Source of the DNA: Actinomucor elegans
Taxonomy: Eukaryota; Mucoromycota; Mucoromycetes; Mucorales; Mucoraceae
DNA length: 64,000 nucleotides
Direction: 5' to 3'
Assembly (NCBI GenBank): GCA_026027325.1
Contig: JAMSLZ010000019.1
Coordinates: 310,001 to 374,000, forward strand
The position numbers were made by a program, and so were the translations under genes. Position 1 is the first letter of the stretch. Each line of letters starts with the position of its first letter. Below the pieces are notes generated by a model. The model was not told the origin of the DNA and searched no databases. It was given only the letters and a program-made list of their open reading frames with translations. Shown here one piece after another: positions 9,463-54,067 of the stretch.

Positions 9463-9694
9463 GAGGGATATCTTTTTTTATATGAATTTAATATATATAT
9501 TAGTAGAAAACATAAATATAATGTTGTTTTTTCATGCATAATGGAACAGTTGCCTTCTTGATAATGTTTATTATACAGAATAATCATTTTAATTTATAAA
9601 AAAGGTTATAAAGATATAAAAACTATGGATATATTAAAAAGTTTAAATATATATAGAAAAGATAAAAATGATGTAATGTCTGTATATATCCGTC
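9463..9694 (+). repeat. F1 terminal unit, left copy
   Basis: This 232-bp AT-rich unit starts GAGGGATATC and ends TATATCCGTC. On the minus strand it encodes a short conserved frame with MHEKTTLYLC. It is essentially identical to 11472-11702, and a diverged solo copy lies at 28097-28328. Confidence 0.85.
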
Positions 9695-9770
9695 TACTAT
9701 AATAATAATAACAGATTATTACTAATTTTTTTCTCTAATATACAAAAATTGAATTTTCTAACTAATAAAA

Positions 9771-10942
9771 ATGGAAACTATTAATATTAAATATAATTTA
9801 CTAAGAGAATATCAAACTTTAACAAATGAATATTGGAAATTTTTAAATTATGGTTTGCCAATTATTAATCAAAAAAAATATCATACAAAAAGGCCAATTC
9901 CTATTAATAAAATCAAGGAAATTAAAAAGGTTTTATTTGAGAAGTTGGGAATTATACCAGTTTATTTCTTTTTAGTTACATTGTTTGGTGATGGAAACTA
10001 TAGAGGATATAGTTTATATGTGGAGCCAATAATAAATAATTCAGAATTAAATGATTTTAACTTTGTATATCTTATTAGAAAAGATAAAAATATAAATTTA
10101 GATGATGTTGAATTAAATTATAATGATCAATTTGGTAGTTTTAGATCAAAAATGGAGAAAGTTTTTTCTGATATTGGATTCATATTTCAGAGATTAAATA
10201 ATAAAAAATCATTTTTAACATCTAATATAAATATATATAATATACAATTAAAAATTGCATCTGTACTTCTAAATATTAAAAGATATGTAAAATGGACATG
10301 TTTATGTAACATTATAAATCATGTGATTTATAATTGTGTAACCAAACATTAATTGTTTTAAATAGAAAATAATAAAAATATAAAACACTTTTTAAAAAGT
10401 GTTCTAAATTGTTTTAAGAAGAAAATATAAATTATTAAAAAATGTTGACATGAATGGCAACTTTTTAATTTTTATTATTTTCAAATGACAAACAATTTGA
10501 TAATATTTTTATATTTTCAGAAAGACAAACAATTAAATAATATAGAACATTACAGTTTTCAATCAAATTGGATGAATGATAACTTTGATTTCGAATATAA
10601 AAATAATTTAACTAGTAATATAGATAGCTATAGTGCACCTCCAAAATTAAATGATAGAATAAATAATTTAGATAAAATGAAATTGTTACAACATCAATTT
10701 TTAGGATTACAATTATCAAATGTTATAAATGATTTAATAATAATATGGATTTAGAGATAGTTGTAAATGATGATGAAAATATTTATGAGATTGATATTAT
10801 TTTAGATCATAAAGGATTAGTAGTTGAAGATAGTTTTTATCTCATAAAATGGAAAAATTACGATAATAGTGAAAATTCTTGGATACATTATACTAAATTT
10901 AATACTTTTGAATGTATTAATGCTTATTGGAACAGTAAATAA
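9771..10942 (+). pseudogene. F1 DDE transposase with chromodomain, internally deleted
   Basis: The N-terminus (LGIIPVYFFLVTLFG) aligns with the intact proteins at 16638 and 52156. Codons that should encode the first two catalytic Asp residues are missing after about residue 80. Sequence resumes near the third acidic motif (GSFRSKMEKVFSDIG). Around 10290-10520 a foreign or intron-like stretch ending TTTTCAG separates this from the next coding part (QLNNIEHYSFQSN). A last segment in another frame (10745-10942) is a chromodomain (YLIKWKNYDNSENSWI). It cannot encode an active enzyme, so F1 would need a transposase from another copy. Confidence 0.75.
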
Positions 10943-11001
10943 GTAATATTTTCGGAATAAATATCAATGTTGAAAAAAATATTACAATATTAAATACAAC
11001 T

Positions 11002-11304
11002 TTATTTAAAATCCCATATTTCTTTAATACTAATATAACCTTTTCTGAGAAACCATGATTTGAAATATGTTTTTCTAATTTCTTCTGTACTTTTCAATGT
11101 TGTTTTTATAACTAAATTTGCATGTACATTTGTATTATTATCACAAAAATCATAAAATGGACCACTATATAAAATATCTTCAATATTCTTAATGTTTTTA
11201 ATCCAAAATAATATTTTCTTGCTTAAAATTTCAAATTTTTTTCCATTAACGTCTTTTTTTTCAGGATCGAGTGTCAATACAACAGCGTAATAATGATATG
11301 TCAT
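11002..11304 (-). CDS. Small accessory protein of F1 (conserved with F3)
   Basis: This 100-aa frame starts MTYHYYAVVLTLDPEKKDV, chosen because the F3 homologue starts at the equivalent Met (38612). Conserved blocks are YYAVVLTL.PEKKDV, ILYSGPFYD, NNTN.HANLVIKT, YFKSW.LRKGY and SIKEI. It ends early at DFK, whereas the F3 protein continues about 20 residues. The gene faces the transposase in F1 but runs with it in F3. The order 'LT..P' motif, single-His 'HANLV' motif and C-terminal helix faintly recalls HUH/Rep endonucleases. That is only a hypothesis, since the second His is absent. I do not recognise the family. Confidence 0.6.
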   Translation of the reverse strand: MTYHYYAVVLTLDPEKKDVNGKKFEILSKKILFWIKNIKNIEDILYSGPFYDFCDNNTNVHANLVIKTTLKSTEEIRKTYFKSWFLRKGYISIKEIWDFK

Positions 11305-11471
11305 TGTAAAAAGATTAAATGTTTTTTTTTGTAAATATATAATAGAATATGTCAATATTTATATTTTTTTTACAAGATATTTTTAGAAATACCAAGAAAT
11401 TTATTTTTGTAATGTTCATGTGATTATTTTTAATTAATATAACAACTTTGTATTCCCTATGCCCTATAGAA

Positions 11472-11702
11472 GAGGGATATCTTTTTTTATATGAATTTAA
11501 TATATATATTAGTAGAAAACATAAATATAATGTTGTTTTTTCATGCATAATGGAACAGTTGCCTTCTTGATAATGTTTATTATACAGAATAATCATTTTA
11601 ATTTATAAAAAGGTTATAAAGATATAAAAACTATGGATATATTAAAAAGTTTAAATATATATAGAAAAGATAAAAATGATGTAATGTCTGTATATATCCG
11701 TC
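11472..11702 (+). repeat. F1 terminal unit, right copy
   Basis: Direct repeat of 9463-9694 with one A fewer in a homopolymer run. It is followed by the TCA target duplication. Confidence 0.85.
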
Positions 11703-12055
11703 TCAGTAATAATACAAGAACCAATACAAGAACAGTACGTTTACTTGTATAAACTAATTCTACCGTAACTTGCAAGTAATCGGCTAAACATGAATTATTG
11801 TTTCATTCATTCATTCTCAGCAGTACCTGTCAATCGGTTAAACATAAGACCTTTAACCAATATAAATACATCTTCATTTTATGACCGAAATAAAGAACAA
11901 TCAATAACTATCTTATTACCAATCAGTAATCTGATTATATATACAAGTCTTATTATTATATTATTACGTGAATCTTTGGTCTTTAGCTACTTCGGATTCA
12001 ACAATATTGATGTTATTATATAAAATGTACATTCTGCATTAAAAGTATTACTAAA

Positions 12056-12568
12056 ATGGATACTCAAGAAGTTATAGATATTTTCCAAGAAGTCATGATG
12101 AGTATGAACGACTTTCTCCTGTATAAAGCAACAAAACGTACATCAGATGCTGAAAAAGCCGAAGCAATCATAAAGAAGCCTCGTAGCATGATTTACCGCA
12201 AAAGACAGCGAGCTCACGTACAGTTATGTGAGGATTACTTTAATGAAGACTGTACGTATACAGAAGACCAATATCGGAGAAGATTCCGAATAAGTGAAGA
12301 CGTTTTCTTTCGCATACTGGACGCTGTCCAAGAAAAGGACGGTTATTTTAAGCAGAAAACCGATGCTGCACGCAGACCTGGTTTCTCTGCTTTACAAAAA
12401 ATATCGGTTGCAATCCGCCTGCTTGCTTATGGAGTATCGGCAGATTCTTTGGACGAATCTTTCCGAATGGCAGAATCAACTTCTCTGGAATGTCTTAAAC
12501 GTTTCTGTTCTGCAGTTGTCTCAATTTTCAGTGATGAATATCCGAGGGCACCAAATGAAGAGGATATC
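12056..12568 (+). pseudogene. PIF/Harbinger-like transposase, N-terminal part
   Basis: 171 codons from an ATG precede the LTR at 12569; the open frame then runs a few codons into the LTR. The segments DYFNEDCTYTEDQYRRRF, RISEDVFFRIL and ISVAIRLLAYGVSADSLDE match the N-terminal half of Harbinger-type ('plant transposon protein') transposases, where a helix-turn-helix precedes the DDE core. The catalytic domain is absent because LTR E replaces it. It was cut by the same LTR that cuts an unrelated Tc1 on the other side. Confidence 0.75.
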
Positions 12569-12877
12569 TGTTGGGTTTGCACAGTGAAATAATAAAGAAG
12601 ACTAAAAAGAGTACTTTTTGAGACTGTGCTTTATTAACAAAGATGAATATATAGATGAAGATCCTATAACTATGTCTAAACTAAACCTATTTATACTAAT
12701 CGTCTATCTAAGTGTGGTGAAGAGGATTTAAGAAGATGTTATGTTATAGGTCTATGTTCTAGATATATATCCATCTGAGACATGAATCTTAAACATATCA
12801 ACTCATAAGTGCTTCCGTAAAGATGAGATTGATAATGAATAAGTTATTATTCATACAATAGTCTCTATTCTATAACA
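12569..12877 (-). repeat. LTR family E, solo, between two different broken genes
   Basis: This 309-bp LTR has TG..CA ends. Its flanks (ATATC on the left, GCTAG on the right) do not match. The sequences on its two sides belong to different transposons, so the copy marks a recombination junction and not a simple insertion. Confidence 0.85.
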
Positions 12878-12984
12878 GCTAGAGAAATGTCTGGTAGTTG
12901 TTTCTGAATTCTTGAGTAAGGAGTGTTTCTTGACAACAGTGACTTGAGAGTGTCTTGCTTATCTTTAGTAATAGAACGAACCAT
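12878..12984 (-). pseudogene. Tc1-type transposase, N-terminal fragment
   Basis: From the ATG at 12984 about 35 codons give a typical Tc1 helix-turn-helix (SITKDKQDTLKSLLSRN, PYSRIQKQLPDIS). It then meets LTR E at 12877. It differs from the four better-preserved Tc1 families in this window. Confidence 0.6.
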
Positions 12985-13273
12985 GATGTTAATTTTTTTT
13001 ATAAAAAAAAAAGTGGTGAAAATATTCAATTTGGACAGGACGAGCCAGCTTCTTTTATTCTTTATTTTAATTTTCCTACTCATAAAGAATGTCCCATTGT
13101 TTTGGACCATGTTTTAAATTTCTTCGATAGCTCAATTTAAAATAATTTTATGCGATGTTAAGTAACGACATATTTTGAAAAATCAAAAAATCAAAAATTC
13201 TCAACTTCTCCTTAACTCCCTAGTTTTAAATACAGTTCAGAATGAAGAAAAAACTATAGAAAAAAAGGTTAAA
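12985..13273. other. AT-rich spacer
   Basis: I see no gene here. It is the upstream region of the truncated Tc1 fragment and the left flank of the Merlin element. Confidence 0.5.
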
Positions 13274-13405
13274 TGCTAATATAAGGACACCAGGTGGATT
13301 TGGACGAATTGAGACCCTAAGGGGCTTTCCTAATTTGGACGAGGTCACGTGGTTTAAACTCCGGTCGGTAGGGGCAAAAATTATAAGTTTTAAAAATATA
13401 AAGTT

Positions 13406-13475
13406 GCGCACTTAGTAAAGTGGTAGTAATGCAATCTGACGCTGATGAGGCCTTAGGTTCAATACTGGCTCAAGT
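13406..13475 (+). other. tRNA-like segment in the left subterminal region of Merlin
   Basis: An A-box-like TTAGTAAAGTGG and a B-box-like GGTTCAATACT lie at tRNA-like spacing, but the acceptor stem does not close well. A counterpart lies inverted near the right end. Confidence 0.35.
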
Positions 13476-13657
13476 CAGTTGTATTTTTTTAGTAGGTGGT
13501 AGTGCATGTAGTCAACATTATTATTGTGAAAGTCTATGAAAATGGATATTGTTTTGTATTTTATAAGACTTAAGATGCTGTACTTTGATTAGTAACTTAA
13601 AGTGTCATATATACATATATAAGTTGAATTTTAACATACAAATTTATTAATTTTAAT

Positions 13658-15189: not shown

Positions 15190-15464
15190 CTTGACAAGAA
15201 GCTTAGATAAAATGAAGATAGTAAATACTTGATAAAAGAGATAAAGAAAGGGGAGAAGGTGGAAAAAGGCACCTTTTTATTACTTTTTTTCTACAACTAG
15301 CAGTCACAATGAGTCATAATATGTCATACTGAGCTATATAAGCCAGCCAATTACTAACTACAAAAGAAAATGAGTCATTAAGACTCAAAATTGATGAGTA
15401 AGCCAGATAAAAGACTACATACACTACAGAGCAATGGAAAAATAATAATGTTGACTACTAGTAT

Positions 15465-16348: not shown

Positions 16349-16571
16349 GAGAAACGATTTCATATTTTAATAAATTAAGGAAAATATATATTGTTATATA
16401 AAAAAAAGAAATTAGAAATAAAATAATAATCCATGAAATATTTTTTGTTTCTGTAAAAAGTTACATCCGTAAGAATTTTAATGTTATATAAAATATTCAA
16501 ATTATATAAAAAAGTTACATAACAATGTTAATATTACACATGCTAATATTTATGAAATAAAATCGTTTCTC
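16349..16571 (+). repeat. F2 terminal unit, left copy
   Basis: 223 bp, starting GAGAAACGATTTCATATTTT and ending AAATAAAATCGTTTCTC. The first and last ~12 bases are inverted repeats. It has no open frame of note. Confidence 0.9.
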
Positions 16572-16637
16572 TAGCTTAATATTTTAGAAGAAGTAATAAA
16601 AGTCTAGACTTTGAATGAATAATGATATAAAAGTTAA

Positions 16638-18134
16638 CTATTCGTCCATTAAATATGCATGATAATCTTCTATAATTTTCTTTTGATAGAAGTCACTTTC
16701 TTTAACCCATGAGTTATATTTTTTATTATATTTTTTCCATTTAACAAAATATTCTTTTTCAGATGTATTGTCATTTACTTTATGCGTTATGATATATTGT
16801 ACTTCATATATATTTTTTTGGGGAGTATTTTTTTTAACATTTTCATTTAAGACATTATGACATTCAAGTATATTATTGTTATTGTTAATATTCATATTAT
16901 TAATATTATATATCATAGCATTTAATAAATCCATTTGCTTATTTTTAATACTCTCTGCTAAATTAATTCTATATTTTACTTTATCTGTTTTTGGAATAAT
17001 TCCTTTTTCTGGATAATCAAAAGATTTTTTTGTCCATAAATAACATTTTTCAGGTATATTAAGTTTACTTATTTCGGAAAATTGTTTTATATTTGATAAT
17101 AAACATACAAGTCTTAATTGAATATTATATGTTTTTAATTTTGTTACTCTTACATTATTTTGTCCTGAAAATCTTTTAAAAGAACTACCTAATGTTGCAA
17201 AGTATGTTTCGATTGTAGACCTAAACCCAGCACAATATTTGTTCAATTGTTCTTCTGAATCATCTAAATCAATATTTTTTTCTTTTTTAATTGGAAATGT
17301 AAAATTATTTATATTCATTTCAATATTGTTTGTTTGATTATATTTTAAAGTTGTTTCTAAAAGCGTATTTTCATAAAGTCCGTCAAAACATATATTATCA
17401 TAAATACTAAAAAACTTATTAAAATCAATATTATTTATAAACATTAAATCATCATTATTATCACGGCAAGGTAATGATTCAGAAACGTAAACAACTATTT
17501 TATTTAAATCTATTATAAATTGCGTGTTTAAACCTGGTTTTTTGAGTTTCCAAGAATACATTTCCTCTCTATCAACATCTATATCTTCATATATAATTTT
17601 ATTATGATGTCCATCTAGTAATAATGTAACATGTTTTACCATTTTAGGATTTTTTAAATAAGATGTTAATATTCTAATTCTTATATTTGAAAAGCAATTA
17701 TCCATTATATTTGTAATCCATGCATCCAATTTATCAAAATTTTTAATAAAGATATATTTGTATATTTTAAAATAATTTGTTACATTTATATATAATATCA
17801 TTTTATTAATTGAAAGACCGCAGATCATATGATATAAAACTATTAATGCTTTATCAATGTCTTTATATGGTCCTGGTAATTTAAATTTGCTGCAAAAATC
17901 TGTTATAAAAACATATGTAGCTAAAACACCAATTTTTTGTTCTATTTCTAATTTTATTTTATTAATATGATTTATTTCAATTAATTCTGTTCTGTGATAC
18001 CCTCTTTTTTCTAACATATATTCGTTATGCAAAAAATACCATTTTTTATTTATTATACTTTCATATTCCATTTGCAACATTAATTCTATTTTTTCTTTAT
18101 CATTATCATGATGTATAACTTCCATCTCATCCAT
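16638..18134 (-). CDS. DDE transposase with C-terminal chromodomain (F2), intact
   Basis: This uninterrupted 498-aa frame starts MDEMEVIHHD. Three acidic residues sit in IS5/Harbinger-like contexts: D174 in LLLDGHHNK, D251 in ICFDGLYEN, and E309 in FRSTIETYFATLGSSFKRF. The block between them (YSWKLKKPGLNTQFI and SESLPCRDNND) is shared with F3 and F4. Residues ~436-490 form a chromodomain (IYEVQYIITHK, YFVKWKKYNKKYNSWV). I expect it to cut at the GAGAAACG-type ends and to use 3-bp targets. Codon use is extremely AT-rich compared with the surrounding Tc1 gene, pointing to a different recent host or element lineage. The exact named superfamily is not certain. Confidence 0.85.
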   Translation of the reverse strand: MDEMEVIHHDNDKEKIELMLQMEYESIINKKWYFLHNEYMLEKRGYHRTELIEINHINKIKLEIEQKIGVLATYVFITDFCSKFKLPGPYKDIDKALIVLYHMICGLSINKMILYINVTNYFKIYKYIFIKNFDKLDAWITNIMDNCFSNIRIRILTSYLKNPKMVKHVTLLLDGHHNKIIYEDIDVDREEMYSWKLKKPGLNTQFIIDLNKIVVYVSESLPCRDNNDDLMFINNIDFNKFFSIYDNICFDGLYENTLLETTLKYNQTNNIEMNINNFTFPIKKEKNIDLDDSEEQLNKYCAGFRSTIETYFATLGSSFKRFSGQNNVRVTKLKTYNIQLRLVCLLSNIKQFSEISKLNIPEKCYLWTKKSFDYPEKGIIPKTDKVKYRINLAESIKNKQMDLLNAMIYNINNMNINNNNNILECHNVLNENVKKNTPQKNIYEVQYIITHKVNDNTSEKEYFVKWKKYNKKYNSWVKESDFYQKKIIEDYHAYLMDE

Positions 18135-18373
18135 TTTTATATTATAATATAATAATCAGTTTTTATTAAAAAAATACGCACAAATTAATTTTGTGTAACC
18201 TTGAAAATAAAAATAAATAAATTCTTAACGATAAAAGCGATGGAATTTATGTTTTTTATTCTATGGATTACTTTTATATTAATATAATTAAGATCCATAT
18301 TTTATATTTCTAACTTTTATTTTACATGTCGGACTTTAAAACAGATTTCGGAGATGGAAAAATTAATTGGCTA

Positions 18374-18596
18374 GAGAAACGATTTCATATTTTAATAAAT
18401 TAAGGAAAATATATATTGTTATATAAAAAAAAGAAATTAGAAATAAAATAATAATCCATGAAATATTTTTTGTTTCTGTAAAAAGTTACATCCGTAAGAA
18501 TTTTAATGTTATATAAAATATTCAAATTATATAAAAAAGTTACATAACAATGTTAATATTACACATGCTAATATTTATGAAATAAAATCGTTTCTC
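18374..18596 (+). repeat. F2 terminal unit, right copy
   Basis: Direct repeat of 16349-16571; I see no difference between them by eye. Confidence 0.9.
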
Positions 18597-19941: not shown

Positions 19942-20162
19942 GAAGAACATTTAGTATTACAGAAATATGTTCAAAATAGTACAATATATAAAAAAATTAG
20001 GAAATAATAGATTTTTTTGAATACAAATAATAATATAAATAAATTTTATTCTAAAATAGAACAAGTAACCAACATTTTATTTATGGATAAAAAGGCAACA
20101 TTATATTTATGCCTTGATTTTTTAGGAAAGTTAAAAATATTAAGTAGTTGTAAATGTTTATC
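19942..20162 (+). repeat. Solo F3 unit with 3-bp target duplication
   Basis: This 221-bp sequence starts GAAGAACATTTAGTATTACA and ends TAAATGTTTATC, with no visible difference from the two units of F3. The flanks are AAT (19939-19941) and AAT (20163-20165). Its removal rejoins the K1 reading frame. Confidence 0.92.
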
Positions 20163-24332: not shown

Positions 24333-24404
24333 GGTTTCATAGTGTAATGGTTATCATATCGGTCTTTGAATCCGGTGATCCGAGTTCGATTCTCGGTGAG
24401 ACCT
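24333..24404 (+). tRNA. tRNA-Gln (TTG anticodon)
   Basis: 72 nt. The acceptor arm GGTTTCA pairs with TGAGACC. The A box TAGTGTAATGG and B box GTTCGATTCTC are present, the anticodon loop reads CTTTGAA (anticodon TTG), and a T run follows as pol III terminator. No intron and no encoded CCA, as expected for a eukaryotic nuclear tRNA. Confidence 0.93.
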
Positions 24405-24953: not shown

Positions 24954-24958
24954 ATTGG

Positions 24959-27264: not shown

Positions 27265-28531
27265 ATGCGCGCTATATCAACCGATCAACGTAACCAAATC
27301 ATATCTCTTCTAAATTCCGGTCAAAGTGTTCGTAAAGTATCTGAAAAGGTTGGAGTTAGCATCGGTACTGTATTCAACATCAGTAGATTAGAATGTTCTG
27401 GAAGAAAACTGTGCAAAAGTGGTAGACCCGAGGCCCTGTCTGGTGCTGATAAACGATATTGTGTACGTTTGATTACTAAAGACAGAATGGATAACGCTGT
27501 TAAAGTCAAGAAACAGCTTCAAATTGATCATGGAATTCATGTTAGCGCTGATACTATTCGTAGAGCTCTCCGTAAGGAGGGTTTGGGAGCTATTGAAAAG
27601 AAGAAGAAGCCTATGCTAAGTGTAAAAAATGCCAGAAAAAGGCTCGCATGGTGTAAAGCTCATTGTTATTGGACAATTGATGACTGGAAACGTGTGGTAT
27701 GGTCAGATGAGACCAAAGTAAATCGCTTCAATTCGGATGGACGCACTTGGGCCTGGATTCGGGATGGTCAAACGTTGCAACCGCGACATATTAATGCTAC
27801 GGTAAAACATGGAGGAGGTAGTATTATGCTTTGGAGTGCGATTACATACGCTGGTGTTGGGTGGATGTGCAAAATTGAAGGCCACATGGATAAAACACTA
27901 TATAAGGAGATCTTAGAAGACGAACAGAGACAAACGATCGATTTTGCATGCGAAAATTTGGGTCTCCGGCGTGACCAAATCATATTCCAGCAGGACAACG
28001 ACCCCAAACACACTTCAAATCTCGTAAAAGACTACCTTAAAGAACAGGAGTACCAAGTCATGGACTGGCCACCACAGTCACCAGACCTCAATCCTAGACG
28101 GATATCTACAATTAATATATCTTTTAAATCTATTGTATATGTCCTATTTTTTTTTAATATATCCATATATTTTATAATTTATAACTTTTTTTCATGAATT
28201 AAAATTATTATTAAGTATAATAAACATTATCAAGAAGGCAACTGTTCCATTTTGCATGAAAAAGCAATATTATATTTATGCTTTCTCCTAATATACGTAC
28301 CAAATTTATATGAAACAAGATGTCCGTCCTATCGAGAATATGTGGAGGTTATTGAAACTGCGCTTAAATGAGCATGAAGCACCTGCAAAAGGTATGAACG
28401 ACCTGTTCGAAAGATCGAAGGAAGTTTGGTATGACATCATTAAGAAGGAGGAGTGCCAAAAGGTTATAGAAAGCATGCCAGAGCGTATTCAACAGTGTAT
28501 CAAGGCAAAAGGTTACTGGACAAAGTATTAA
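27265..28531 (+). pseudogene. Tc1-beta transposase, intact frame apart from one insertion
   Basis: The best start is the ATG at 27265 (MRAISTDQRNQIISLLNSG); an upstream TTG only extends the frame. A bipartite HTH (VRKVSEKVGVS and IHVSADTIRRALRK) is followed by KKKKPMLSVKNARKRLAWCK and the DDE core: D in VWSDETKV, D in IFQQDNDPKHTSN, and E in PPQSPDLNP-IENMW. The solo unit at 28097-28328 separates NP from IE; without it the frame runs on to GYWTKY at 28531. No other lesion is seen, so inactivation appears due to this single insertion. Confidence 0.9.
28097..28328 (-). repeat. Solo F1-family unit with 3-bp target duplication
   Basis: 232 bp with ends GACGGATATCT and AGATGTCCGTC, flanked by CTA (28094-28096) and CTA (28329-28331). 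It is a diverged, inverted relative of the F1 units and has the same length. It keeps the short frame HEKAILYLC. Confidence 0.88.
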
Positions 28532-38235: not shown

Positions 38236-38456
38236 GAAGAACATTTAGTATTACAGAAATATGTTCAAAATAGTACAATATATAAAAAAATTAGGAAATA
38301 ATAGATTTTTTTGAATACAAATAATAATATAAATAAATTTTATTCTAAAATAGAACAAGTAACCAACATTTTATTTATGGATAAAAAGGCAACATTATAT
38401 TTATGCCTTGATTTTTTAGGAAAGTTAAAAATATTAAGTAGTTGTAAATGTTTATC
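38236..38456 (+). repeat. F3 terminal unit, left copy
   Basis: The ends GAAGAACATTTA and TAAATGTTTATC are imperfect inverted repeats. It contains a short frame MDKKATLYLCLDFLGKL, comparable to that in the F1 units. Confidence 0.9.
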
Positions 38457-38611
38457 TTGTCCTATTTTTAGACTTCCATTGCGTTTAATCACATTGAGAA
38501 ATCTAAAAACAACTTCCTTGGCATCTAATTCTTGGCATGATATTTTGGAAAATATAAAAGTATCTATAATATTTGAGAATTATTTTTAAAATAACATCAA
38601 TATTATATTTA

Positions 38612-38980
38612 ATGGAAAAAATCTATTATTATGCTGTGGTTTTAACTCTAAATCCTGAAAAAAAAGATGTCAAGAATAAATCATCCGAAATATTAAACAA
38701 GAAAATACTGCAATGGGTTGGAAATATAAAAAATATTGATAAAATTTTATATAGTGGTCCTTTCTATGATGTTGGTGAAAACAATACAAATATCCATGCC
38801 AATTTAGTGATAAAAACAATTTTAGATGATAACGAAAAAGTTAGAAATGAATATTTCAAATCCTGGTGTTTAAGAAAAGGATATGTTAGTATTAAAGAAA
38901 TTTATAATTTTAAATCATGGTTAGATTATGCAAAAAGAAATCATAAGTTCTTGGAAAATATAGAAAATATTAAAAATTGA
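38612..38980 (+). CDS. Accessory protein of F3, full length
   Basis: This 122-aa frame starts MEKIYYYAVVLTLNPEKKDV. It is clearly homologous to the F1 protein at 11002 (shared YSGPFYD, NNTN.HANLVIKT, YFKSW.LRKGY.SIKEI). It keeps a C-terminal helix lost in F1 (FKSWLDYAKRNHKFLENI). The alternation of hydrophobic beta-like stretches and the conserved YYAVVLTL and HANLVIKT blocks suggest a small alpha/beta nucleic-acid-binding fold, possibly Rep/HUH-like. The catalytic pattern is incomplete, so this is unproven. It lies ~90 bp before the transposase on the same strand. Confidence 0.7.
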   Translation: MEKIYYYAVVLTLNPEKKDVKNKSSEILNKKILQWVGNIKNIDKILYSGPFYDVGENNTNIHANLVIKTILDDNEKVRNEYFKSWCLRKGYVSIKEIYNFKSWLDYAKRNHKFLENIENIKN

Positions 38981-39070
38981 ATTTTCATATATAAATAAAA
39001 GTTTATTAAATATAGAAAATATTAAAAATTGAATTTCTCTTTATATAAAAATACATCATTTTATTTGTTT

Positions 39071-40506
39071 ATGAACACTCATATAGACTTATTAATTGAA
39101 AATGAATACAGAAATATTTACAATAGGTATTGGAAATTTATGAAAAATGAATATATATATAAAGTTGAATTGAAATATCATAGATCTAAAATAACGAGTA
39201 TACCAAATATTGATAGAATTAAAAAAAATATATATATTAAATTAGGAAGTATTGCTCCATTTGTATTTTTGACAGATTTATGTAACAATATAAAACTACC
39301 AGGTCCATATATAACAGCAGATAAAGTATTGATATTATTAGAACATTTATTAAATGGAAAATCTATAAATGAAATGGAAATGTATATTCCATCTACTAGT
39401 TTTTATAAATTATATCAATCATTATATATAAATAATTATGATTTATTGGAAAAATGGATAAATAATAAATTAGAAAAATGTTTTTCTACACATACATTGA
39501 GATTACTTTGTGCTAAGAAATTTAATCCAATGATGTTAGATAATGTAACATTACTAATTGATGGTCACCATAATCGTATAACATATCAAGATATTAATCT
39601 AGATAAAAAGAGTTATTCTCGTATAAATTAAAAAGAAATGGATTAAATACACAATTTATTATAGATATTAATAGAATATGTGTTTATATATCTGATTCCT
39701 TACCTTGTAGAAATAATACTGATGATAAAATGCTTTTAGACATAAATATCAATAAGTTTTATAATGAAATAGATTGTATATGTTTTGATGGATTATATGA
39801 AAACACAGTAAAAGAATTTATAGAAAAATTTAGTAATATTGGATTTAATATATCCTTGAAAAATTTTTGCTATCCTATAAAAAAAGATAAAGGAGTTGAA
39901 TTAACCATAGATGAAAAAAAATTCAATGAAGAATTAGGTGGATTAAGGTCAAAAATAGAAAAATATTTTGCAGAATTAGGTAGTATTTTTAAAAGATTTA
40001 GTGGACAAAATAAGATTAGAATAACAGATAATAAGACATATAATATACAGCTAAAATTAGCAATAGTATTACTGAACATAAAATATTTTACAGAGTTATT
40101 TGGAATTGAAGAAAATGCCCATTACAACAAATGGCTAAATGATAATTTTGATTATTATTATAAAAATAATATTGAAATGAATAAAGAAGTAACATTAAAA
40201 ACACAATATAAAATAGAAAATATCGTTGATATAAAATCATTACAAAATCAATTTTTAAATAATTTAAATATAAATGAAGTGAATATAGATATTATGGATC
40301 AAATGGAGGAAGATATCACTAGTAATAATGATCAAAATATATATGAAATACAATATATAATTAAACACAAAAAAGTAAAGAACTTATATGAATATTTTGT
40401 AAAATGGAAAAAGTATGGTAAAGAACATAATTCATGGGTAAAAGAAAAAGATTTTACATCACATGATACTATTTTGAATTATTGGAAATCAATAGAAAAT
40501 AATTAA
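39071..40506 (+). pseudogene. F3 DDE transposase with chromodomain, one frameshift
   Basis: It starts MNTHIDLLIENEYRN. The first catalytic Asp is in LLIDGHHNRITY. A one-base loss in an A run near 39607 shifts the frame before YKLKRNGLN. The second part has D in CICFDGLYEN, E in LRSKIEKYFAELGSIFKRF, and a chromodomain (YFVKWKKYGKEHNSWV) at the end. Apart from this single homopolymer shift, which could also be a sequencing error, it aligns over its whole length with F2 (16638-18134). Confidence 0.85.
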
Positions 40507-40517
40507 TCAATTAATAA

Positions 40518-40738
40518 GAAGAACATTTAGTATTACAGAAATATGTTCAAAATAGTACAATATATAAAAAAATTAGGAAATAATAGATTTTTTTGAATAC
40601 AAATAATAATATAAATAAATTTTATTCTAAAATAGAACAAGTAACCAACATTTTATTTATGGATAAAAAGGCAACATTATATTTATGCCTTGATTTTTTA
40701 GGAAAGTTAAAAATATTAAGTAGTTGTAAATGTTTATC
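40518..40738 (+). repeat. F3 terminal unit, right copy
   Basis: Direct repeat of 38236-38456; no difference seen by eye. Confidence 0.9.
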
Positions 40739-41775: not shown

Positions 41776-43279
41776 CTTTTTTTAACTTGAGGCAGAGTTT
41801 AATAATAAAAGTAATCAATTAATATTGATTGAAGAATATCGCATTTAAATATTTTTCTACACTGATCTGCTGCGTATTTATAGACTTCGCTTCAATAATC
41901 CGCAGCTCTTTTAAAAGCAATTGGAAACGATATGATTCGTTCAAACCGCTGGCCTTTTTTTTATTTATTTTTAATTCGGAATTTGGTGTAGTTTTTTATC
42001 TTTGTCATCTATTCTTTTAGTTACAATAAACTGCTTTAAAACTCGACATGAATGCAACATTTAAATAGAATTTGGCAACTAAGACTCAAAATTAGTCCAA
42101 CAACGCTTGAAAAATCCGCAGCCATGTTTTATATAAAGACGATTTCGGTAAAATCTCGCACTTAATTACTACATCAGCCTCAGAATGAACTCTTAATGAA
42201 AAAGAATTTCAAAATTGTAGCCCCAATGCTTTTGTCTGGTCAAATGCCTTGTACATAAAAGTTGAATTGTAACTAACATGGCAAAAGTACATGCTTTTTA
42301 AAAAAAACTCAGTGATGACTATCAACCATTTGACATTCATTGAAATGGCATTTATTTTGCACGTTAATTAACCAATTCAAACGCATTTTAAGCAAGACAT
42401 GTATTCTTCAGTGCTAATAATACTTGAAGAATTCTCGATACTTGCTTGACAATGTAATATTTTACAGTAAAACAGTATTATAATAAGGGAATGCAATTGC
42501 AACAGCTGTATCATAGTGTCTCTTTTTTAAAAGCTATATATGAATAGGCTCTTTTGCATATATCCATGTTCTTAAAGTCCTTGAGGTAATTTATGTTAAT
42601 TTTTATACCTTGTTTTTTTTCTCAAATATTGTATAGCTTGTAGTAATTGTGGCATCTCTATTAAAACTCATTACATTTAATCAGTCATTAGGCTTTTTTC
42701 TTTTTGTTTCTCTTTGTTTCTCTTTTTTTTTTTTCCTCTTTTTTTTTCACTCTTTTTTCACTCTTTTTTTTTTTTTTTTTTTTTTTACTAAAGCTACATT
42801 TTTATACTTATACTACACCAACTATATTTCACCAACAAGAATAACTAGTTTATTCACTGTTACAATTATCTATATATACATATATATACTATTATAACTT
42901 ATTATATTTTAATAATTAGTAGTTTGAATAAGCATTAATTATTTAAAAAACGCGCTTTTTTTTTTATGTTTTAAAAAACTTGCAATTCTTTATGAAAATC
43001 AGTCTGATCGGAAAGCGAAAGGTTCACGTAAAAATTATGCCTGAAATTGATACTTATATAAAAAATGTCAAATATGGCATAAAAATATTGTTTTTTTTAT
43101 ATAAAAACAATTGAATACAACCAAAGACAATATTTATTTAAAAAAACAGAATGTTTATAATCAAAGTAACGAATTATATGAAAAAAACAGTTTTCTCAGT
43201 TTTGGCAGAAGCATGTTCGGGGATACTCTCTACTGGCTCAACCCCGAATTTCATGCTGGAATTCAAATTATTTGCAGTG
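41776..43279. other. K2 5' non-coding region and right terminus
   Basis: Nearly identical (inverted) to 51200-55113 of K3 once F4 is removed there. It contains a long pyrimidine tract (42720-42790) and TTCGGGG/CCCCGAA subterminal motifs (43212-43258). Position 42814-42816 is the empty target of F4. The open frame at 42649-42897 is low-complexity and rejected. Confidence 0.7.
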
Positions 43280-43336: not shown

Positions 43337-43408
43337 TCTTCGGTAGTATAGTGGTGAGTATCCCCGCCTGTCACGCGGGAGACCGGGGTTCAATTCCCCG
43401 CCGGAGAG
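43337..43408 (+). tRNA. tRNA-Asp (GTC anticodon), copy 1
   Basis: 72 nt. TCTTCGG pairs with CCGGAGA, A box TAGTATAGTGG, anticodon loop CTGTCAC, B box GGTTCAATTCC, followed by TTTTTT. Identical to the copy at 50661-50732. Confidence 0.95.
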
Positions 43409-46226: not shown

Positions 46227-47624
46227 CAGTGGGTGAAAAAACTGTTCACGTGTTTAGTGATTTCGGATAAATCATTCCAAAACTCAAGAACTACTCGACA
46301 TATAATTATGTAAAAATATCCATAAGAAACTTCGATTGAATATGCAACTATGATAAAAAATATGCATTGATTACTTTATTGGTTGTTGCGTAATGTACTA
46401 AACAAATAAGGTACTACGCGTGAACAATTTTTTCCCTATTAAACTAATATCTAGTTGGTCCACCTTTCGCATCCAAAACAGCTTTAATTCGAGCTGGCAT
46501 ACTTTCAATGTACCTCCTACATTCCTCCTCAGTAAATGTATTCCATTCTTCGTCACACCGTTTCCATAGACCATGTACACCGGTTGGCTTCGTGTCGTAT
46601 GCGCTTAGTTTAAGCTTAAGGTGATGCCACAGGTGTTCGATTGGATTCATATCAGGGCTTTGAGGTGGCCAATCGTCAATCCAGTTGACATTATGTTCAG
46701 AGAACCACTTTTTTGTGGAATTAGCCGTATGTTTTGGGTCATTATCTTGTTGAAAGTAGATATCCTCCCATTTCAAACCATAGTAATCGAGGCTCTCTCG
46801 AAGTGTTGTGCCCAATATACCTTGGTAATCTTCGGCATTCATTGCTCCATCGTAAATTTGGCAAGCATATCCAGGCCCCCAGTAGGTCATGCAGCCCCAC
46901 ATCATAAGGCTGCCATTCCCATGCTTAACTGTAACGTCTATATGATGGGGTTTTAATGGGTCACCGGGCCTAGACCAGTAGTACTTGCATCCATCGGAAC
47001 CCCAAACGTTTATCTTCGTTTCATCTGACCAAACTACACGTTTCCAATCGTCTACAGTCCAATGCTGATACTTTTTGGCCCAGTTGTATCGCTTTAGGCG
47101 ATTTCTATGGCTGATGAATGGCTTCTTTTTCTTTATTTCTGCATGGGAATCCCATTGATCTCAAAATATTTGTGGCTGTTTTGTATGACAAATGGTAACC
47201 AAGTGACAAAAACTCTTTGTAGGCATCTTGGACCGTCAAAAGCCTACCAAATAGTATCTTCCGTCTAACTAAAGCCTTGCTTGTATCGTCCACAATAGCG
47301 GGTCTACCACCAGTAGCACGTTGACCATCTGGGAACCATCTCTTGTTGTACTTAGATACAACTCCAGCAGAGACGCCAAACCTTTTTTCAATCACTGAGT
47401 AGGGTGTGGTTCCTTTGATAAGAAGAGCTTTCATGTCCATTTGGGTGTCGATAGATAGAGAATGAGTCATATCTGATGTATAATGAAGAGTATTAGTTGT
47501 AAGGTCTGAAAAATAACATATAACCGAACGAATATTGGTTCTTTTATACTTTACAGTACCTTACGTCAATGCTTGGTATATTCGGATCATTTCGGATCAA
47601 CAATAATGGATTTACAGCACCATT
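46227..47624 (-). mobile_element. Tc1-alpha copy 2, outer end lost to LTR A
   Basis: The left end CAGTGGGTGAAAAAACTGTT is at 46227 and follows TA. The other end is replaced by LTR A at 47625. This copy shows the uninterrupted F2 target at 46780-46782. Confidence 0.88.
46444..47470 (-). pseudogene. Tc1-alpha transposase copy 2, frameshifted
   Basis: HTH part 47470-47105 (with an extra codon giving KGTTPYSV), then the same one-base shift as copy 1 before the DDE part, which runs uninterrupted to GGPTRY at 46444. It contains FQQDNDPKHTANS and QSPDMNPIEHLW. Apart from the shared shift it looks intact. Confidence 0.87.
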
Positions 47625-49920: not shown

Positions 49921-50002
49921 TATGTTTGTTGGTATATTTAAATGATATATGCCAAATTTAAACATGAGCTGTATAGTAACTACATTTGGAAACTTTACTA
50001 AA

Positions 50003-50106
50003 TGTTGAATCCGAAGTAGCTAAAGACCAAAGATTCACGTAATAATAATAATAAGACTTGTATATGTAATCAGATTACTGATTGGTAATAAGATAGTTAT
50101 TAATTG
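50003..50106 (-). repeat. LTR family H, end fragment
   Basis: TGTTGAATCCGAAG.. is the inverse of 11895-12003, cut by LTR A at 50107. Confidence 0.65.
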
Positions 50107-50470
50107 TGTTATATCGAATATAATAAAGACTGTAAAAATAACCAGACTGATAAAACGAATTGATTTATTAAAGCATTAAAATGATGAGCTATTTATACAA
50201 AATTGAAGTTCGGATTTAACTTGATATTATAGACGATTGAGTTAGTCAAAGACTGTGCTCATGGAGTTAACAAGGATTTATAGTAATCCATTCTAGTACG
50301 ACTTTATGTTCGGTGATAGATAGTTTATGAAGGTTAGTTGCACTAAGCATTGATTTCCATATATATCTCTTAACCGACGTTACAAAGCTGTCAAAGCACA
50401 AGCTGAGTATAAGCATTGTCGAACATTGACCTGATTGGTGACGGACACTGAACAAGTCATGTTTACAACA
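50107..50470 (-). repeat. LTR family A between two unrelated elements
   Basis: 364 bp with standard ends. LTR H lies on the left and Tc1-beta on the right, with no target duplication. Confidence 0.88.
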
Positions 50471-50591
50471 ATCTACACGATTTGCTCTTTACAACAATAT
50501 AAGTGACATCAAAATCAGCGATAGAAAAATTTGATTTTGAATGCGGTTTCTAAAAAAATGTCAAACATTTGAACAGTTTTGCGAGTCACTG
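50471..50591 (-). mobile_element. Tc1-beta end fragment
   Basis: Inverse of 26890-27010 including the terminal CAGTGACTCGCAAAACTGTT, followed by TA. It is truncated by LTR A. Confidence 0.82.
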
Positions 50592-50660
50592 TAGCTCTAC
50601 ACACGGCACTAAAGTAAATACACTACACACTGCACTTATAGAGTGTGCGGTAAAAAAAAT

Positions 50661-50732
50661 CTCTCCGGCGGGGAATTGAACCCCGGTCTCCCGCGTGACA
50701 GGCGGGGATACTCACCACTATACTACCGAAGA
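50661..50732 (-). tRNA. tRNA-Asp (GTC anticodon), copy 2
   Basis: Exact inverse of 43337-43408, followed on the minus strand by a T run. Confidence 0.95.
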
Positions 50733-51199
50733 TAGATGTTTTGATACGTAGCGTGGTGTATAATCCCCACTCTAAACTAAAAGAACCCTAGACGCACACC
50801 ACCTACTATATTAGGCCCTTAAGGTCCGACCTTAATATTTTACTTACACTACGAAATAACTTAGTTACACACTCTACTCTCTGATAATTTAAATATCACT
50901 ATAATTTAACTTATAAATAAACAAGCTTTTCTTTTGATTATAAATTGAATAAGACGTTTTGACGAGTTTGGAATTGATACTTGGAAGGATTTGAAAATAT
51001 AATCGTGAATCATTAACTTAATAGAACAAATATACATTTATACATCAATATTCGATATAAATTCATATTAATCTCGGGTGAATTGTATCAGAAGAACCGT
51101 AAAGCAACTCAAATCAAGAATTCACACTTTAGTACCGTAAACGTATCAGTTTTGATATGTGTCTAGTTTGTTGGTTCGCTGATCTCGCTCGTTCAGTGA
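50733..51199. other. Spacer between tRNA-Asp and K3
   Basis: No gene seen. A short CACCACG-type motif upstream of the tRNA resembles that before tRNA-Asp copy 1. Confidence 0.5.
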
Positions 51200-51666
51200 C
51201 ACTGCAAATAATTTGAATTCCAGCATGAAATTCGGGGTTGAGCCAGTAGAGAGTATCCCCGAACATGCTTCTGCCAAAACTGAGAAAACTGTTTTTTTCA
51301 TATAATTCGTTACTTTGATTATAAACATTCTGTTTTTTTAAATAAATATTGTCTTTGGTTGTATTCAATTGTTTTTATATAAAAAAAACAATATTTTCAT
51401 GCCATATTTGACATTTTTTATATAAGTATCAATTTCAGGCATAATTTTTTACGTGAACCTTTCGCTTTCCGATCAGACTGATTTTCATAAAGAATTGCAA
51501 GTTTTTTAAAACATAAAAAAAAAAGTGCGTTTTTTAAATAATTAATGCTTATTCAAACTACTAATTATTAAAATATAATAAGTTATAATAGTATATATAT
51601 GTATATATAGATAATTGTAACAGTGAATAAACTAGTTATTCTTGTTGGTGAAATATAGTTGGTGTA

Positions 51667-51948
51667 GGAGGTCATACAGATACTCGCAATTGTTGTACAA
51701 TTACTCGTACAGGTTCTGGGTTAGTGGATGACCTTAGGTATTTACTCATGGGCATATTTTTGGCTGCTGTGATGTTCTCTGGATATGTGTACCCATTTAA
51801 ATGGCTATTTCCAATTTTTAAAACGGCTAGAAATATTTGGAATGCCGGAGACATATTGTATAACCACATTCTATTGCACCCGGTCATCCACTAACCCAGA
51901 ACCTGTACGAGTAATTGTACAACAATTGCGAGTATCTGTATGACCTCC
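51667..51948 (+). repeat. F4 terminal unit, left copy
   Basis: 282 bp, itself a MITE-like structure with ~67-bp inverted ends (GGAGGTCATACAGATACTCG). Identical by eye to 53786-54067. Confidence 0.92.
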
Positions 51949-52090
51949 TAGTGGGATATCTCACCACACACTGGTAGACATACGTTCCATAGCAAGGTAG
52001 TAGAGAGGGGGGGGGGGCAAAAGGGATGATCTTGTCCAGAGACCTGAATAGTTTCAGCCCCCCTGGGAATGGAAACTAAGGAGCCTAAGG
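51949..52090 (+). repeat. F4 core inverted repeat, left arm
   Basis: ~142 bp starting TAGTGGGATATCTCACCACA, containing a run of 11 G. The right arm is 53645-53785. Confidence 0.9.
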
Positions 52091-52155
52091 TTGTAGTACG
52101 AGTAACATGTGTTGACAGTTGGGCGAAGCTTTTAAAAAGAATCCCCTTGTGGAAC

Positions 52156-53565
52156 CTACTTCTTCCGCCTTCTTCTAACGTCTTTCTCATACTCGATAAT
52201 AATATCAGAGTCGTCGAAGTTGTTAGGAGAAAGCCAACTATTGCTACTCTCATCATAGCCTACCCACCTAACCAAATACTCTCTACGATGCTTTGGTCCA
52301 CGATGCCCAACAATGGCCTCAACCTCGTAGTGTCCTTGTGGTAAGTCCTCGTCGATGGGTTCGTCATCAGAGCCATTATCTTCGTTCACCCCCAAAGAGA
52401 GAAACTGCTGCTGTATTTCTTTTACCATCTCAGCATCTTGGGACTTTTCCGCAATTGTAAGGGTACTTACTACGTCATAGACATTCTTACTGCTGCCATT
52501 TGGAAAGTCGAAGTTAGGCTGCATCCAAAAAGTATGTTGTTCAGAGCTAGAAACACACCCAATGTTAACAAACTTCTTGATGTTTGCAAGAAGACATGCA
52601 AGCTTGAACTGTACCGTGAATGTCTCCATCTCGGTAACTCGAATAACGCCTTTACCGTTGAATCGTTGAAATAAGGTTCCAATCTCTCCAAACGTTGCTT
52701 CTATCGAGGAACGAAAGCTTCCAAGAATGGAGTTGTAATTAACTTCTTCTTGTTTCAGACCCACTCCTCGAGACTTACGGATAGGGAATACAAAATTATG
52801 GCGATCCAGGTGACGATTATTTGCTACAATACGATCTATAAAAGTAGTGTATCCACCATCAACGACAACACAATCGTACTTACTAATCTTCTTCTTCAAC
52901 CGCATATCAGCAAGCATAGACCCATCGTTGTTATCTGAACATGGTGCCGCATCGGAGACAAACAACACCATCCCATTAACATCTGTACATACTTGTGTTC
53001 GGAAGCCAGACTTCTTAAGCTTATACGAATAGAACATGGCATGATCTGCAGCGTTGATATATGTTGCTCTAGAATCATGTCCATCTATCATCAAGGTAAC
53101 ATGCTTAAAATCTTCAGGGTTTCGGTGAAGAGCACACATAATTCGCAGCTTTGTTGAGGAGAACATCTTTCGTAGGCAATAGTCCAAACAGGTATTCAGC
53201 TCCTCTCCGTATTTTGTATAAAAGGCATTGTAAATAGCATGGTAGCTACTAGAAGGGATGAAACGTGCCATATGCGCAATAGAACAACCGGTAAGAAGCT
53301 GGTAGATTATCAACAATCCTTTGTCCACGTTGGAATATGGACCAGGATATTCTTGGTTTGCAAACAGCTCTACGAGAAAGAAAAAAACAGGTATGTAGCC
53401 AAGATGCTCCAACACATAAGTTTTTACATGCTGGATATCTTTTACAGGCTTAACCTCAGACCGGTGATACTTAGTCTTTTCCAACACTGGCCAATCTTTA
53501 GAAAGAAACTGCCAGTAAGTCGCCATAAGCAACGTAAACGCATCTACTATTTCTTTCGGAAACAT
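52156..53565 (-). CDS. DDE transposase with C-terminal chromodomain (F4), intact
   Basis: This 469-aa frame starts MFPKEIVDAFTLLMATYWQF with no lesion. Putative catalytic residues are D161 in LMIDGHDSRATY, D236 in CVVVDGGYTTF, and E289 in FRSSIEATFGEIGTLFQRF, the layout of IS5/Harbinger-type DDE enzymes. The segment YSYKLKKSGFRTQVCTDVNG and SDAAPCSDNND is the family hallmark shared with F2 and F3. Residues ~411-465 are a chromodomain (EAIVGHRG, YLVRWVGYDESSNSWL), and the protein ends in a basic KDVRRRRKK. Base composition is close to the host's, unlike F1-F3. With perfect ends and an intact gene, it is the best candidate for an active copy. Confidence 0.88.
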   Translation of the reverse strand: MFPKEIVDAFTLLMATYWQFLSKDWPVLEKTKYHRSEVKPVKDIQHVKTYVLEHLGYIPVFFFLVELFANQEYPGPYSNVDKGLLIIYQLLTGCSIAHMARFIPSSSYHAIYNAFYTKYGEELNTCLDYCLRKMFSSTKLRIMCALHRNPEDFKHVTLMIDGHDSRATYINAADHAMFYSYKLKKSGFRTQVCTDVNGMVLFVSDAAPCSDNNDGSMLADMRLKKKISKYDCVVVDGGYTTFIDRIVANNRHLDRHNFVFPIRKSRGVGLKQEEVNYNSILGSFRSSIEATFGEIGTLFQRFNGKGVIRVTEMETFTVQFKLACLLANIKKFVNIGCVSSSEQHTFWMQPNFDFPNGSSKNVYDVVSTLTIAEKSQDAEMVKEIQQQFLSLGVNEDNGSDDEPIDEDLPQGHYEVEAIVGHRGPKHRREYLVRWVGYDESSNSWLSPNNFDDSDIIIEYEKDVRRRRKK

Positions 53566-53644
53566 GTTTATTTAAGAATGCTGTAGTATAATAGGAGTTG
53601 TATGCTACCAAATGCTGTTGTTCACTCCCAGTCCTACAGTGTAG

Positions 53645-53785
53645 CCTTAGGCTCCTTAGTTTCCATTCCCAGGGGGGCTGAAACTATTCAGGTCTCTGGA
53701 CAAGATCATCCCTTTTGCCCCCCCCCCTCTCTACTACCTTGCTATGGAACGTATGTCTACCAGTGTGTGGTGAGATATCCCACTA
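53645..53785 (-). repeat. F4 core inverted repeat, right arm
   Basis: Inverse of 51949-52090; the poly-G run is one base shorter. Confidence 0.9.
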
Positions 53786-54067
53786 GGAGGTCATACAGAT
53801 ACTCGCAATTGTTGTACAATTACTCGTACAGGTTCTGGGTTAGTGGATGACCTTAGGTATTTACTCATGGGCATATTTTTGGCTGCTGTGATGTTCTCTG
53901 GATATGTGTACCCATTTAAATGGCTATTTCCAATTTTTAAAACGGCTAGAAATATTTGGAATGCCGGAGACATATTGTATAACCACATTCTATTGCACCC
54001 GGTCATCCACTAACCCAGAACCTGTACGAGTAATTGTACAACAATTGCGAGTATCTGTATGACCTCC
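53786..54067 (+). repeat. F4 terminal unit, right copy
   Basis: Direct repeat of 51667-51948. Confidence 0.92.

What the first reader, a model, noticed from the sequence alone, without database searches (positions are those of the whole stretch)
9463..54067. New transposon architecture: chromodomain DDE transposase between LTR-like direct repeats with 3-bp target duplications
Four separate elements (9463-11702, 16349-18596, 38236-40738, 51667-54067) share one plan. A DDE transposase of IS5/Harbinger type with a C-terminal chromodomain lies between two direct copies of a 221-282 bp unit. Each unit is bounded by its own inverted ends, and the whole is flanked by 3-bp duplications TCA, ATA, TAT and GTA. 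Within each pair the units are identical by eye, or differ by one base, but units of different families are unrelated in most of their length. DDE transposons normally end in inverted repeats, not in paired direct repeats, so the plan recurring in four families argues for a mechanism and not for accident. I know of no described family with this layout.
Basis: partly seen in the sequence, partly recalled or inferred. Interest (0 to 1): 0.95.

Follow-up and report, generated by a model that had tools for sequence, protein, structure and literature searches.

The report
Fungal transposons with copied end units
A fungus carries many families of transposons whose two ends are copies of one small unit, and proteins inside some of them that resemble rolling-circle replication starters suggest that they may be copied out as circles before being pasted back.

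Summary
All four elements have paired units with their own inverted ends and 3-bp duplications; paralogous empty sites exist for 4 of 4. Of 11 related families resolved in this genome, 9 share the plan; F6 and F11 do not. The layout is not unknown: KolobokP (PMC9587614) has it in animals, with another transposase and a homing nuclease. Here the transposase is DDE_Tnp_4 plus chromodomain. New here: (1) left and right units are copies of one template (2 of 2 private substitutions shared within an insertion; 30 of 31 E1/F5 differences shared by both units, none grouping left with left). (2) Some families encode proteins resembling two unrelated rolling-circle initiators: HUH-like (E3, F9, truncated in E1) and Rep_trans-like (long F4). 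(3) Units of E1, F5 and E3 share a hairpin with conserved loop and compensated stem; 198 genomic sites, 0 for the reversed pattern. Best reading: unit-core circles are copied out by rolling-circle replication from an origin in the unit and pasted in by the DDE transposase. Against it: E2, F7, F8 and F10 show neither initiator nor hairpin, fold matches are weak, and no circle was seen.

The parts
9463..11702 (+). E1 element (DDE incomplete), TSD TCA at 9460-9462 / 11703-11705
9463..9694 (+). E1 left unit, 232 bp
11472..11702 (+). E1 right unit, 231 bp (one A fewer)
9507..9530 (+). candidate origin hairpin in E1 left unit
11516..11539 (+). candidate origin hairpin in E1 right unit
9771..10352 (+). 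E1 DDE remnant
   Evidence: weak DDE_Tnp_4, E 0.08
11005..11304 (-). E1 HUH-like ORF, ends before the motif III Tyr
16349..18596 (-). E2 element, TSD ATA
16349..16571 (+). E2 left unit
18374..18596 (+). E2 right unit
16638..18134 (-). E2 DDE + chromodomain protein, 498 aa
   Evidence: Chromo 8.6e-10; DDE_Tnp_4 2.6e-5, 24.3 bits against a cut-off of 24.8
38236..40738 (+). E3 element, TSD TAT
38236..38456 (+). E3 left unit
40518..40738 (+). E3 right unit
38386..38409 (-). candidate origin hairpin in E3 left unit
40668..40691 (-). candidate origin hairpin in E3 right unit
38612..38980 (+). E3 accessory ORF, 122 aa, HUH (Rep)-like fold
39071..39631 (+). E3 DDE protein, first part (frame interrupted in this copy)
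39730..40506 (+). E3 DDE protein, second part with chromodomain
51667..54067 (-). E4 element (short form of F4), TSD GTA
51667..51948 (+). E4 left unit, 67-bp perfect inverted arms
53786..54067 (+). E4 right unit
52156..53565 (-). E4 DDE + chromodomain protein, 469 aa
19942..20162 (+). solo E3 unit, TSD AAT, with hairpin 20092-20115 (-)
28097..28328 (+). solo F5 unit, TSD CTA, with hairpin 28261-28284 (-)
46633..46932 (+). paralogous empty site for E2
56000..56301 (-). paralogous empty site for E3
42669..42963 (-). paralogous empty site for E4

Best explanation
A lineage of eukaryotic DDE_Tnp_4/chromodomain transposons whose integrated form is unit-core-unit. SHOWN: unit-core-unit (and one dimer) sits in a target with a 3-bp duplication, and the two units are copies of one template. 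INFERRED: the mobile form is a unit-core circle. In families with an initiator, that protein nicks a hairpin origin in the unit; replication runs across the core to the identical origin in the other unit and frees a unit-core circle while the chromosomal copy stays (copy-out). The DDE transposase then joins unit ends of a circle or concatemer to a target with a 3-bp stagger, giving unit-core-unit (paste-in). Solo units arise by recombination between units, by transposition of the unit, or both.
For: Insertion: 23 of 28 copies listed have a 3-bp duplication at G...C ends (20 at my coordinates; L041, L044, L045 after moving ends by 1-2 bp, which eases chance matches), and 4 of 4 F4-long copies read in two pieces (ATT, AAT, AGT, TGA). 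From the window's base composition a 3-bp match has a chance of about 2%. Dimer L054 has TSD ATA and empty sites. One template: private substitutions A183G (L007/L025) and T75C (L008/L051) are in both units of their insertion, 2 of 2; E1 vs F5: 30 of 31 differing sites agree between L and R in both families, 0 sites group L with L. Initiators: 122-aa ORF, pLDDT 84.7; against BFVD 2 of 848 hits have E<=0.001, both unnamed; of 11 named rows among the 50 shown, 6 are replication proteins by name and one is a parvovirus nonstructural protein; Thr12 in strand 1, H62 in strand 3, Y106 with K/R at +3 in a helix. 555-aa F4-long protein, pLDDT 92.8: Foldseek ranks 5 and 6 are rolling-circle initiators (4cwc, 4cwe; E 2.0e-3 and 2.6e-3); the longest of the 50 VIA alignments shown is to 4cij, 179 residues; D43, D163, Y218xK220xxQ223 and R263xE265 are invariant in 50 sequences and recall the Rep_trans motifs quoted, with Y218 and E265 in strands. 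Origin: hairpin in E1/F5/E3 units, 2 of 6 pairs compensated (18 of 500 shuffles as high); the only shared-loop hairpin among nine units (2 of 20 shuffled sets had any); 198 sites against 0 reversed; on the strand opposite to the HUH-like ORF in both E1 and E3.
Confidence: 0.45

Rival explanations
1. Plain cut-and-paste of a long element whose ends happen to be two MITE-like units; the units stay identical through gene conversion or unequal crossing-over between them.
For: Units have complete inverted ends and occur alone with 3-bp duplications (11 of 15 true solos). The two orientations of the F4 middle segment suggest recombination between short identical arms.
Against: Needs conversion to homogenise every family: 30 of 31 E1/F5 differences are shared by both units, and L and R agree to within one base in the nine families. 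Gives no role to the initiator-like proteins or the hairpin.
Confidence: 0.22
2. DDE-only replicative transposition as in IS6/IS26: a unit-core circle made by recombination inserts through its single unit as a cointegrate, duplicating the unit.
For: Predicts unit-core-unit, 3-bp duplication outside, identical units, dimers; works also for families without an initiator. The KolobokP authors discuss the same analogy.
Against: Eukaryotic relatives of this transposase are held to be cut-and-paste (recalled); leaves the initiators unexplained.
Confidence: 0.17
3. As proposed for KolobokP: the accessory nuclease nicks or breaks the unit and induces unequal exchange, multimers and homogenisation; movement itself is cut-and-paste.
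For: Dimer L054, an E3 spacing that suggests another (HUH-like ORFs at C22:11745 and 14027), solo units.
Against: The accessory folds look like replication initiators, not homing nucleases. Multimers look rare: among the first 100 of 198 hairpin sites listed, 38 pairs and no site in two pairs.
Confidence: 0.12
4. Assembly artefact or misread LTR retrotransposon.
For: Direct repeats and identical copies are where assemblies fail.
Against: 27 contigs for 36.5 Mb, distinct flanks, 3-bp duplications and paralogous empty sites. The six ORFs of 120 aa or more inside the four elements match DDE_Tnp_4 and Chromo, or nothing convincing, and no reverse transcriptase.
Confidence: 0.01

Closest known systems
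KolobokP (Kojima and Bao 2022, PMC9587614)
   Same: Internal region with DDD/E transposase between long terminal direct repeats that carry their own inverted ends; short duplications outside; solo units; multimers sharing units; second ORF encoding a nuclease (abstract, passages and section 8 seen).
   Different: There: Kolobok transposase in seven animal phyla, repeats about 450 or 660 bp, solo TSDs 3-5 bp, His-Me homing nuclease, core ends left bare by unit excision. Here: DDE_Tnp_4 + chromodomain, units 221-293 bp, 3-bp TSDs, initiator-like proteins; none of 130 probe hits on core ends lacked a unit.
PHIS superfamily (PIF/Harbinger, Pangu, ISL2EU, Nuwa, Spy; PMC4482050, passages seen)
   Same: DDE_Tnp_4 type transposase, 3-bp duplication, ends beginning with G.
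   Different: The paper's main text has 0 matches for 'chromo' and for 'direct repeat'. No group TSD motif fits: TWA 4, ANT 10, TNA 6 of 38 TSDs. No Myb/SANT match among the ORFs scanned.
IS6/IS26 translocatable units and pseudo-composite transposons (recalled; discussed in PMC9587614)
   Same: Direct copies of one unit around a core, from a circle with one unit.
   Different: There the transposase lies in the repeated unit; here in the core. Other superfamily and domain of life.
Rolling-circle replicons (CRESS and pT181 type; PMC8780604 and PMC5714925, passages seen)
   Same: HUH-like or Rep_trans-like protein and a hairpin with a conserved loop; two tandem origins would release one period.
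   Different: Integrated in a chromosome with a DDE transposase; the 122-aa ORF is too short for the Rep ATPase domain; motif departures.

Membership tests
KolobokP | Long terminal direct repeats with own TIRs around the core | tested here: met
   (F4 units are inverted in part of the copies)
KolobokP | Kolobok-type DDD/E transposase | tested here: not met
   Pfam hits are DDE_Tnp_4 (E4 1e-11; F5 3e-10 and F10 5e-10) plus Chromo; no direct comparison with a Kolobok protein was made
KolobokP | His-Me finger nuclease ORF | tested here: not met
   no His-Me/HNH family in Pfam for the accessory ORFs; folds resemble other proteins
PIF/Harbinger and other PHIS groups | DDE_Tnp_4 transposase with DDE triad | tested here: met
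   D161, D236, E289 invariant in 19 sequences (the choice of the triad is mine)
PIF/Harbinger and other PHIS groups | 3-bp duplication | tested here: met
PIF/Harbinger and other PHIS groups | Group TSD motif (TWA recalled for PIF/Harbinger; ANT Pangu, TNA NuwaII) | tested here: not met
   TWA 4, ANT 10, TNA 6 of 38
PIF/Harbinger and other PHIS groups | Place in a DDE tree with named group members | not tested
   no named reference proteins fetched; the tree holds only this lineage and its hits
LTR retrotransposon | Reverse transcriptase / gag-pol in the core | tested here: not met
   the six ORFs of 120 aa or more in the four elements
HUH Rep endonuclease (122-aa ORF) | Fold of the HUH endonuclease domain | tested here: inconclusive
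   named BFVD hits favour it; PDB hits tie with S6/Lrp/ACT folds
HUH Rep endonuclease (122-aa ORF) | Motif I Thr on strand 1 | tested here: met
   T12 at least 90% conserved, strand 5-13 (definition)
HUH Rep endonuclease (122-aa ORF) | Motif II H-U-H or H-U-Q on strand 3 | tested here: not met
   N60-x-H62-x-N64; therefore called HUH-like only
HUH Rep endonuclease (122-aa ORF) | Motif III Y-x-x-K/H on a helix | tested here: inconclusive
   Y106, +3 is R or K, helix 100-110; 16 of 16 E1-type rows stop before it
Rep_trans initiator (555-aa ORF) | Motif III YxKxxE with Tyr in a beta-strand | tested here: inconclusive
   Y218xK220xxQ223, strand 212-219 (definition)
Rep_trans initiator (555-aa ORF) | Motif IV W/LxRxE | tested here: inconclusive
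   R263xE265 invariant in 50 sequences, but the residue two before R is M in the query
Rep_trans initiator (555-aa ORF) | Motif I RxD | tested here: not met
   D163 invariant, no R two before it; therefore called Rep_trans-like only
Rolling-circle replicon | Initiator nicks the hairpin; circular or ssDNA intermediate | not testable with these tools
   needs biochemistry or reads

The most novel reading that the evidence does not exclude
A eukaryotic transposon that joins two replication logics: it is copied out as a unit-core circle by a rolling-circle initiator acting on twin origins in its end units, then pasted in by a DDE transposase. Two unrelated kinds of initiator would have been recruited by the same transposase lineage, and the paired-unit layout would be the footprint of the copy-out step.
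Probability: 0.4. Interest if true: 0.93.

Novelty: new variant of a known kind. Interest (0 to 1): 0.8.

Why it matters
The KolobokP paper says that long terminal direct repeats are unlike any other DNA transposon and that its molecular pathway is unknown. A second, unrelated superfamily with the same plan says that the plan is a workable strategy. Initiator-like proteins and a covarying hairpin inside the unit give a concrete, testable source of the repeats, and would explain how a DDE transposon multiplies without losing its donor copy.

Tried and rejected
Composite by accident: rejected as the sole cause by the E1/F5 comparison. AAV-like flip-flop hairpin ends for F4: considered because the middle segment faces either way; set aside because E1-E3 units have only short arms and 14 of 14 E3 pairs among the 40 scored places are direct. 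A geminivirus-type nonanucleotide: scattered matches in AT-rich DNA, not used. Unit-excision footprints as in KolobokP: none; all 130 probe hits on core ends abut a unit and 2 more lie at a locus edge (F4 ends are hit by both probes and L001 repeats the window, so distinct ends are fewer; cores that lost their ends were not examined). Relatives in IMG/VR: none by pattern scans. GTDB genomes gave two rabbit-gut MAG contigs (L056, L057), too short to show paired units. Pfam, PHROGs and PDB by sequence found nothing convincing for the accessory ORFs. The DDE tree has no named outgroups; paired-unit families lie on both sides of its midpoint root, F6 and F11 within one of them; a single origin is not excluded. 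Diverged E1 copies (L078-L080) proved to be solo units with like flanks, of no use for the L/R test. That the 555-aa protein goes with this DDE in other species rests on 11 contig lengths shared between two hit lists (null mean 2.5-2.6; highest of 5000 draws 12; 0 of 20000 reached 11), not on contigs read.
Full report
WHAT IS THERE. The four elements are as described. Ends, unit lengths and 3-bp duplications were recovered by self-BLAST and re-measured. For each, the flanks joined minus one duplication match an uninterrupted paralogous copy: E1 in L025 (98.7%), E2 at window 46633-46932 (99.3%), E3 at 56301-56000 (98.7%), E4 at 42963-42669 (95.3%). So each unit-core-unit went in as one block, or as a unit that was later filled. 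The transposase is DDE_Tnp_4 with a C-terminal chromodomain. E2 and E4 have an open frame; E3 is split in this copy; E1 keeps only a remnant.

HOW COMMON. The window lies in an unnamed 36.5-Mb genome of 27 contigs. The E4 protein finds at least 91 places (91 of 425 candidates scored). The unit searches for E1, E3 and E4 scored only 40 of 108, 101 and 65 candidates; of those 40 places, 31 (E1), 28 (E3) and at least 17 (E4) lie in pairs at one element period; E2, fully scored, has 13 places: 4 pairs and 5 single ones, 2 of them partial. Of the relatives whose DNA I read, E1, E2, E3, E4, F5 (L022-L030), F7 (L036, L037), F8 (L040, L041, L050), F9 (L042, L043) and F10 (L044, L045) have paired units. 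F6 (L031-L035) consists of two modules, each with its own inverted ends, and F11 (L038, L039) of one; neither has paired units. F6 has a 3-bp duplication in the 2 copies tested (L033, L034), F11 in both by eye (ATA, TTG). That is 9 of 11 families. Protein relatives bear names of Rhizomucor, Cunninghamella, Apophysomyces, Lichtheimia, Mortierella and kin (120 of 213 rows shown).

DUPLICATIONS. Among 28 copies, 20 have a 3-bp duplication exactly at my coordinates and 3 more (L041, L044, L045) after moving ends by 1-2 bp to the G...C ends; L053 has 4 bp, L046 lies in a TA repeat, and L003, L027 and L028 have none. Four F4-long copies read in two pieces all have one (ATT, AAT, AGT, TGA). I fetched 20 places that looked single in the capped lists: 5 adjoin a core and are not solo; of the 15 true solos 11 have a perfect 3-bp duplication.

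ONE TEMPLATE FOR BOTH UNITS. In F4, two insertions carry a private substitution in the unit, and in both it is present left and right: A183G (L007 and L025) and T75C (L008 and L051). Between families E1 and F5 the units are homologous over about 178 bp; of 31 differing sites 30 agree between left and right within each family (the other falls in E1's one-base gap), and no site groups left with left. Left and right therefore do not evolve apart. Against this, run-length changes in A/T tracts differ between units of one insertion (window E1, L054, L024; four more E1 pairs by length), as slippage or sequencing error would give. L054 is a dimer, unit-core-unit-core-unit, with TSD ATA and empty sites.

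F4 PECULIARITY. The F4 unit has 67-bp perfect inverted arms; its 148-bp middle faces either way: 6 direct and 4 inverted in the 10 copies read on both sides; by hit strands one more is inverted (L006) and one more direct (C13:380745/384920). The 14 E3 pairs among the 40 scored places are all direct.

HAIRPIN. Units of E1, F5 and E3 share a 12-base loop, TAAATATAATRT, in a 6-bp stem that reads AAAACA, AAAGCA and AAGGCA with matching 3' sides: two of six pairs change on both sides (18 of 500 shuffles as high; with 4 rows this control is weak). A scan of nine units for hairpins with shared loops finds only this trio; 2 of 20 shuffled sets gave any. The 16-base core occurs 198 times in the genome, the reversed spelling never; among the first 100 places listed, 76 form 38 same-strand pairs at one element period and 24 are single. 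Eight stretches fetched around places not known to me all hold units of E3 or F5; in one, L085, a degenerate E3 unit, the stem is down to 3 bp. In E1 and E3 the hairpin lies on the strand opposite to the HUH-like ORF, though opposite ways relative to the transposase. F9, whose ORF is 39% identical to E3's, lacks it.

HOW IT MOST LIKELY WORKS. Two direct origins around a core are what a replicon needs to free one unit-length circle from a chromosome: nick in one unit, copy across the core, close at the next (general knowledge; PMC8780604 describes nick, extension past the start and re-closure). The circle holds one unit and the core; the DDE transposase, using unit ends of a concatemer, or of one unit by strand transfer and replication, pastes unit-core-unit into a 3-bp target. 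Insertion and templating are shown; the circle, the nick and the choice of ends are inferred. Families without an initiator would need help in trans, another origin, or the IS26-like route.

WHAT IS KNOWN. KolobokP (PMC9587614) has the same plan with other parts; its authors propose transposition plus nuclease-induced unequal crossover and discuss circles. 'KolobokP' is in 1 paper of the library; 'LTDR' with 'transposon' in 5, the other four being streptococcal or staphylococcal papers by title. Searches for related layouts or for an initiator with a DDE transposase listed no other such element, judged by titles and starts of abstracts of the rows shown only; subscription papers and Repbase were not searched. 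PMC4482050 and PMC12730594 were seen by passages.

Noticed in passing
G000 C21:2358212-2366250 (L009, L010): Inverted F4-long dimer: unit, core, shared unit, core in the opposite direction, unit; the outer flanks show no matching 3-bp duplication.
   Followed up: partly
L031-L035 (family F6): Two inverted-end modules side by side, one with the transposase and one with a 201-aa ORF without known relatives (KIDLDI stretch), move as one block with a 3-bp duplication in the two copies tested.
   Followed up: partly
window 11005-11304: 16 of 16 E1-type rows match only the first part of the accessory ORF, short of the motif III Tyr, while a full-length relative exists elsewhere (P0007); the E1 read here also lacks a whole transposase, so it may be moved in trans, perhaps by F5, whose ends are alike.
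   Followed up: partly
window 24333-24404, 43337-43408, 50661-50732: Three tRNA genes by Rfam.
   Followed up: no
L045 239-746, 4694-5203, 5383-5888: Three copies of a repeat of about 507 bp with ends TGTTGTAAA and TTTACAACA, probably another mobile element.
   Followed up: no
L056, L057: Two contigs binned as rabbit-gut Bacilli encode relatives of this fungal transposase; probably contamination by fungal DNA.
   Followed up: no
L078, L079, L080: Solo E1 units with the same flanks and TSD TGT on C5, C18 and C4: duplicated host DNA.
   Followed up: partly
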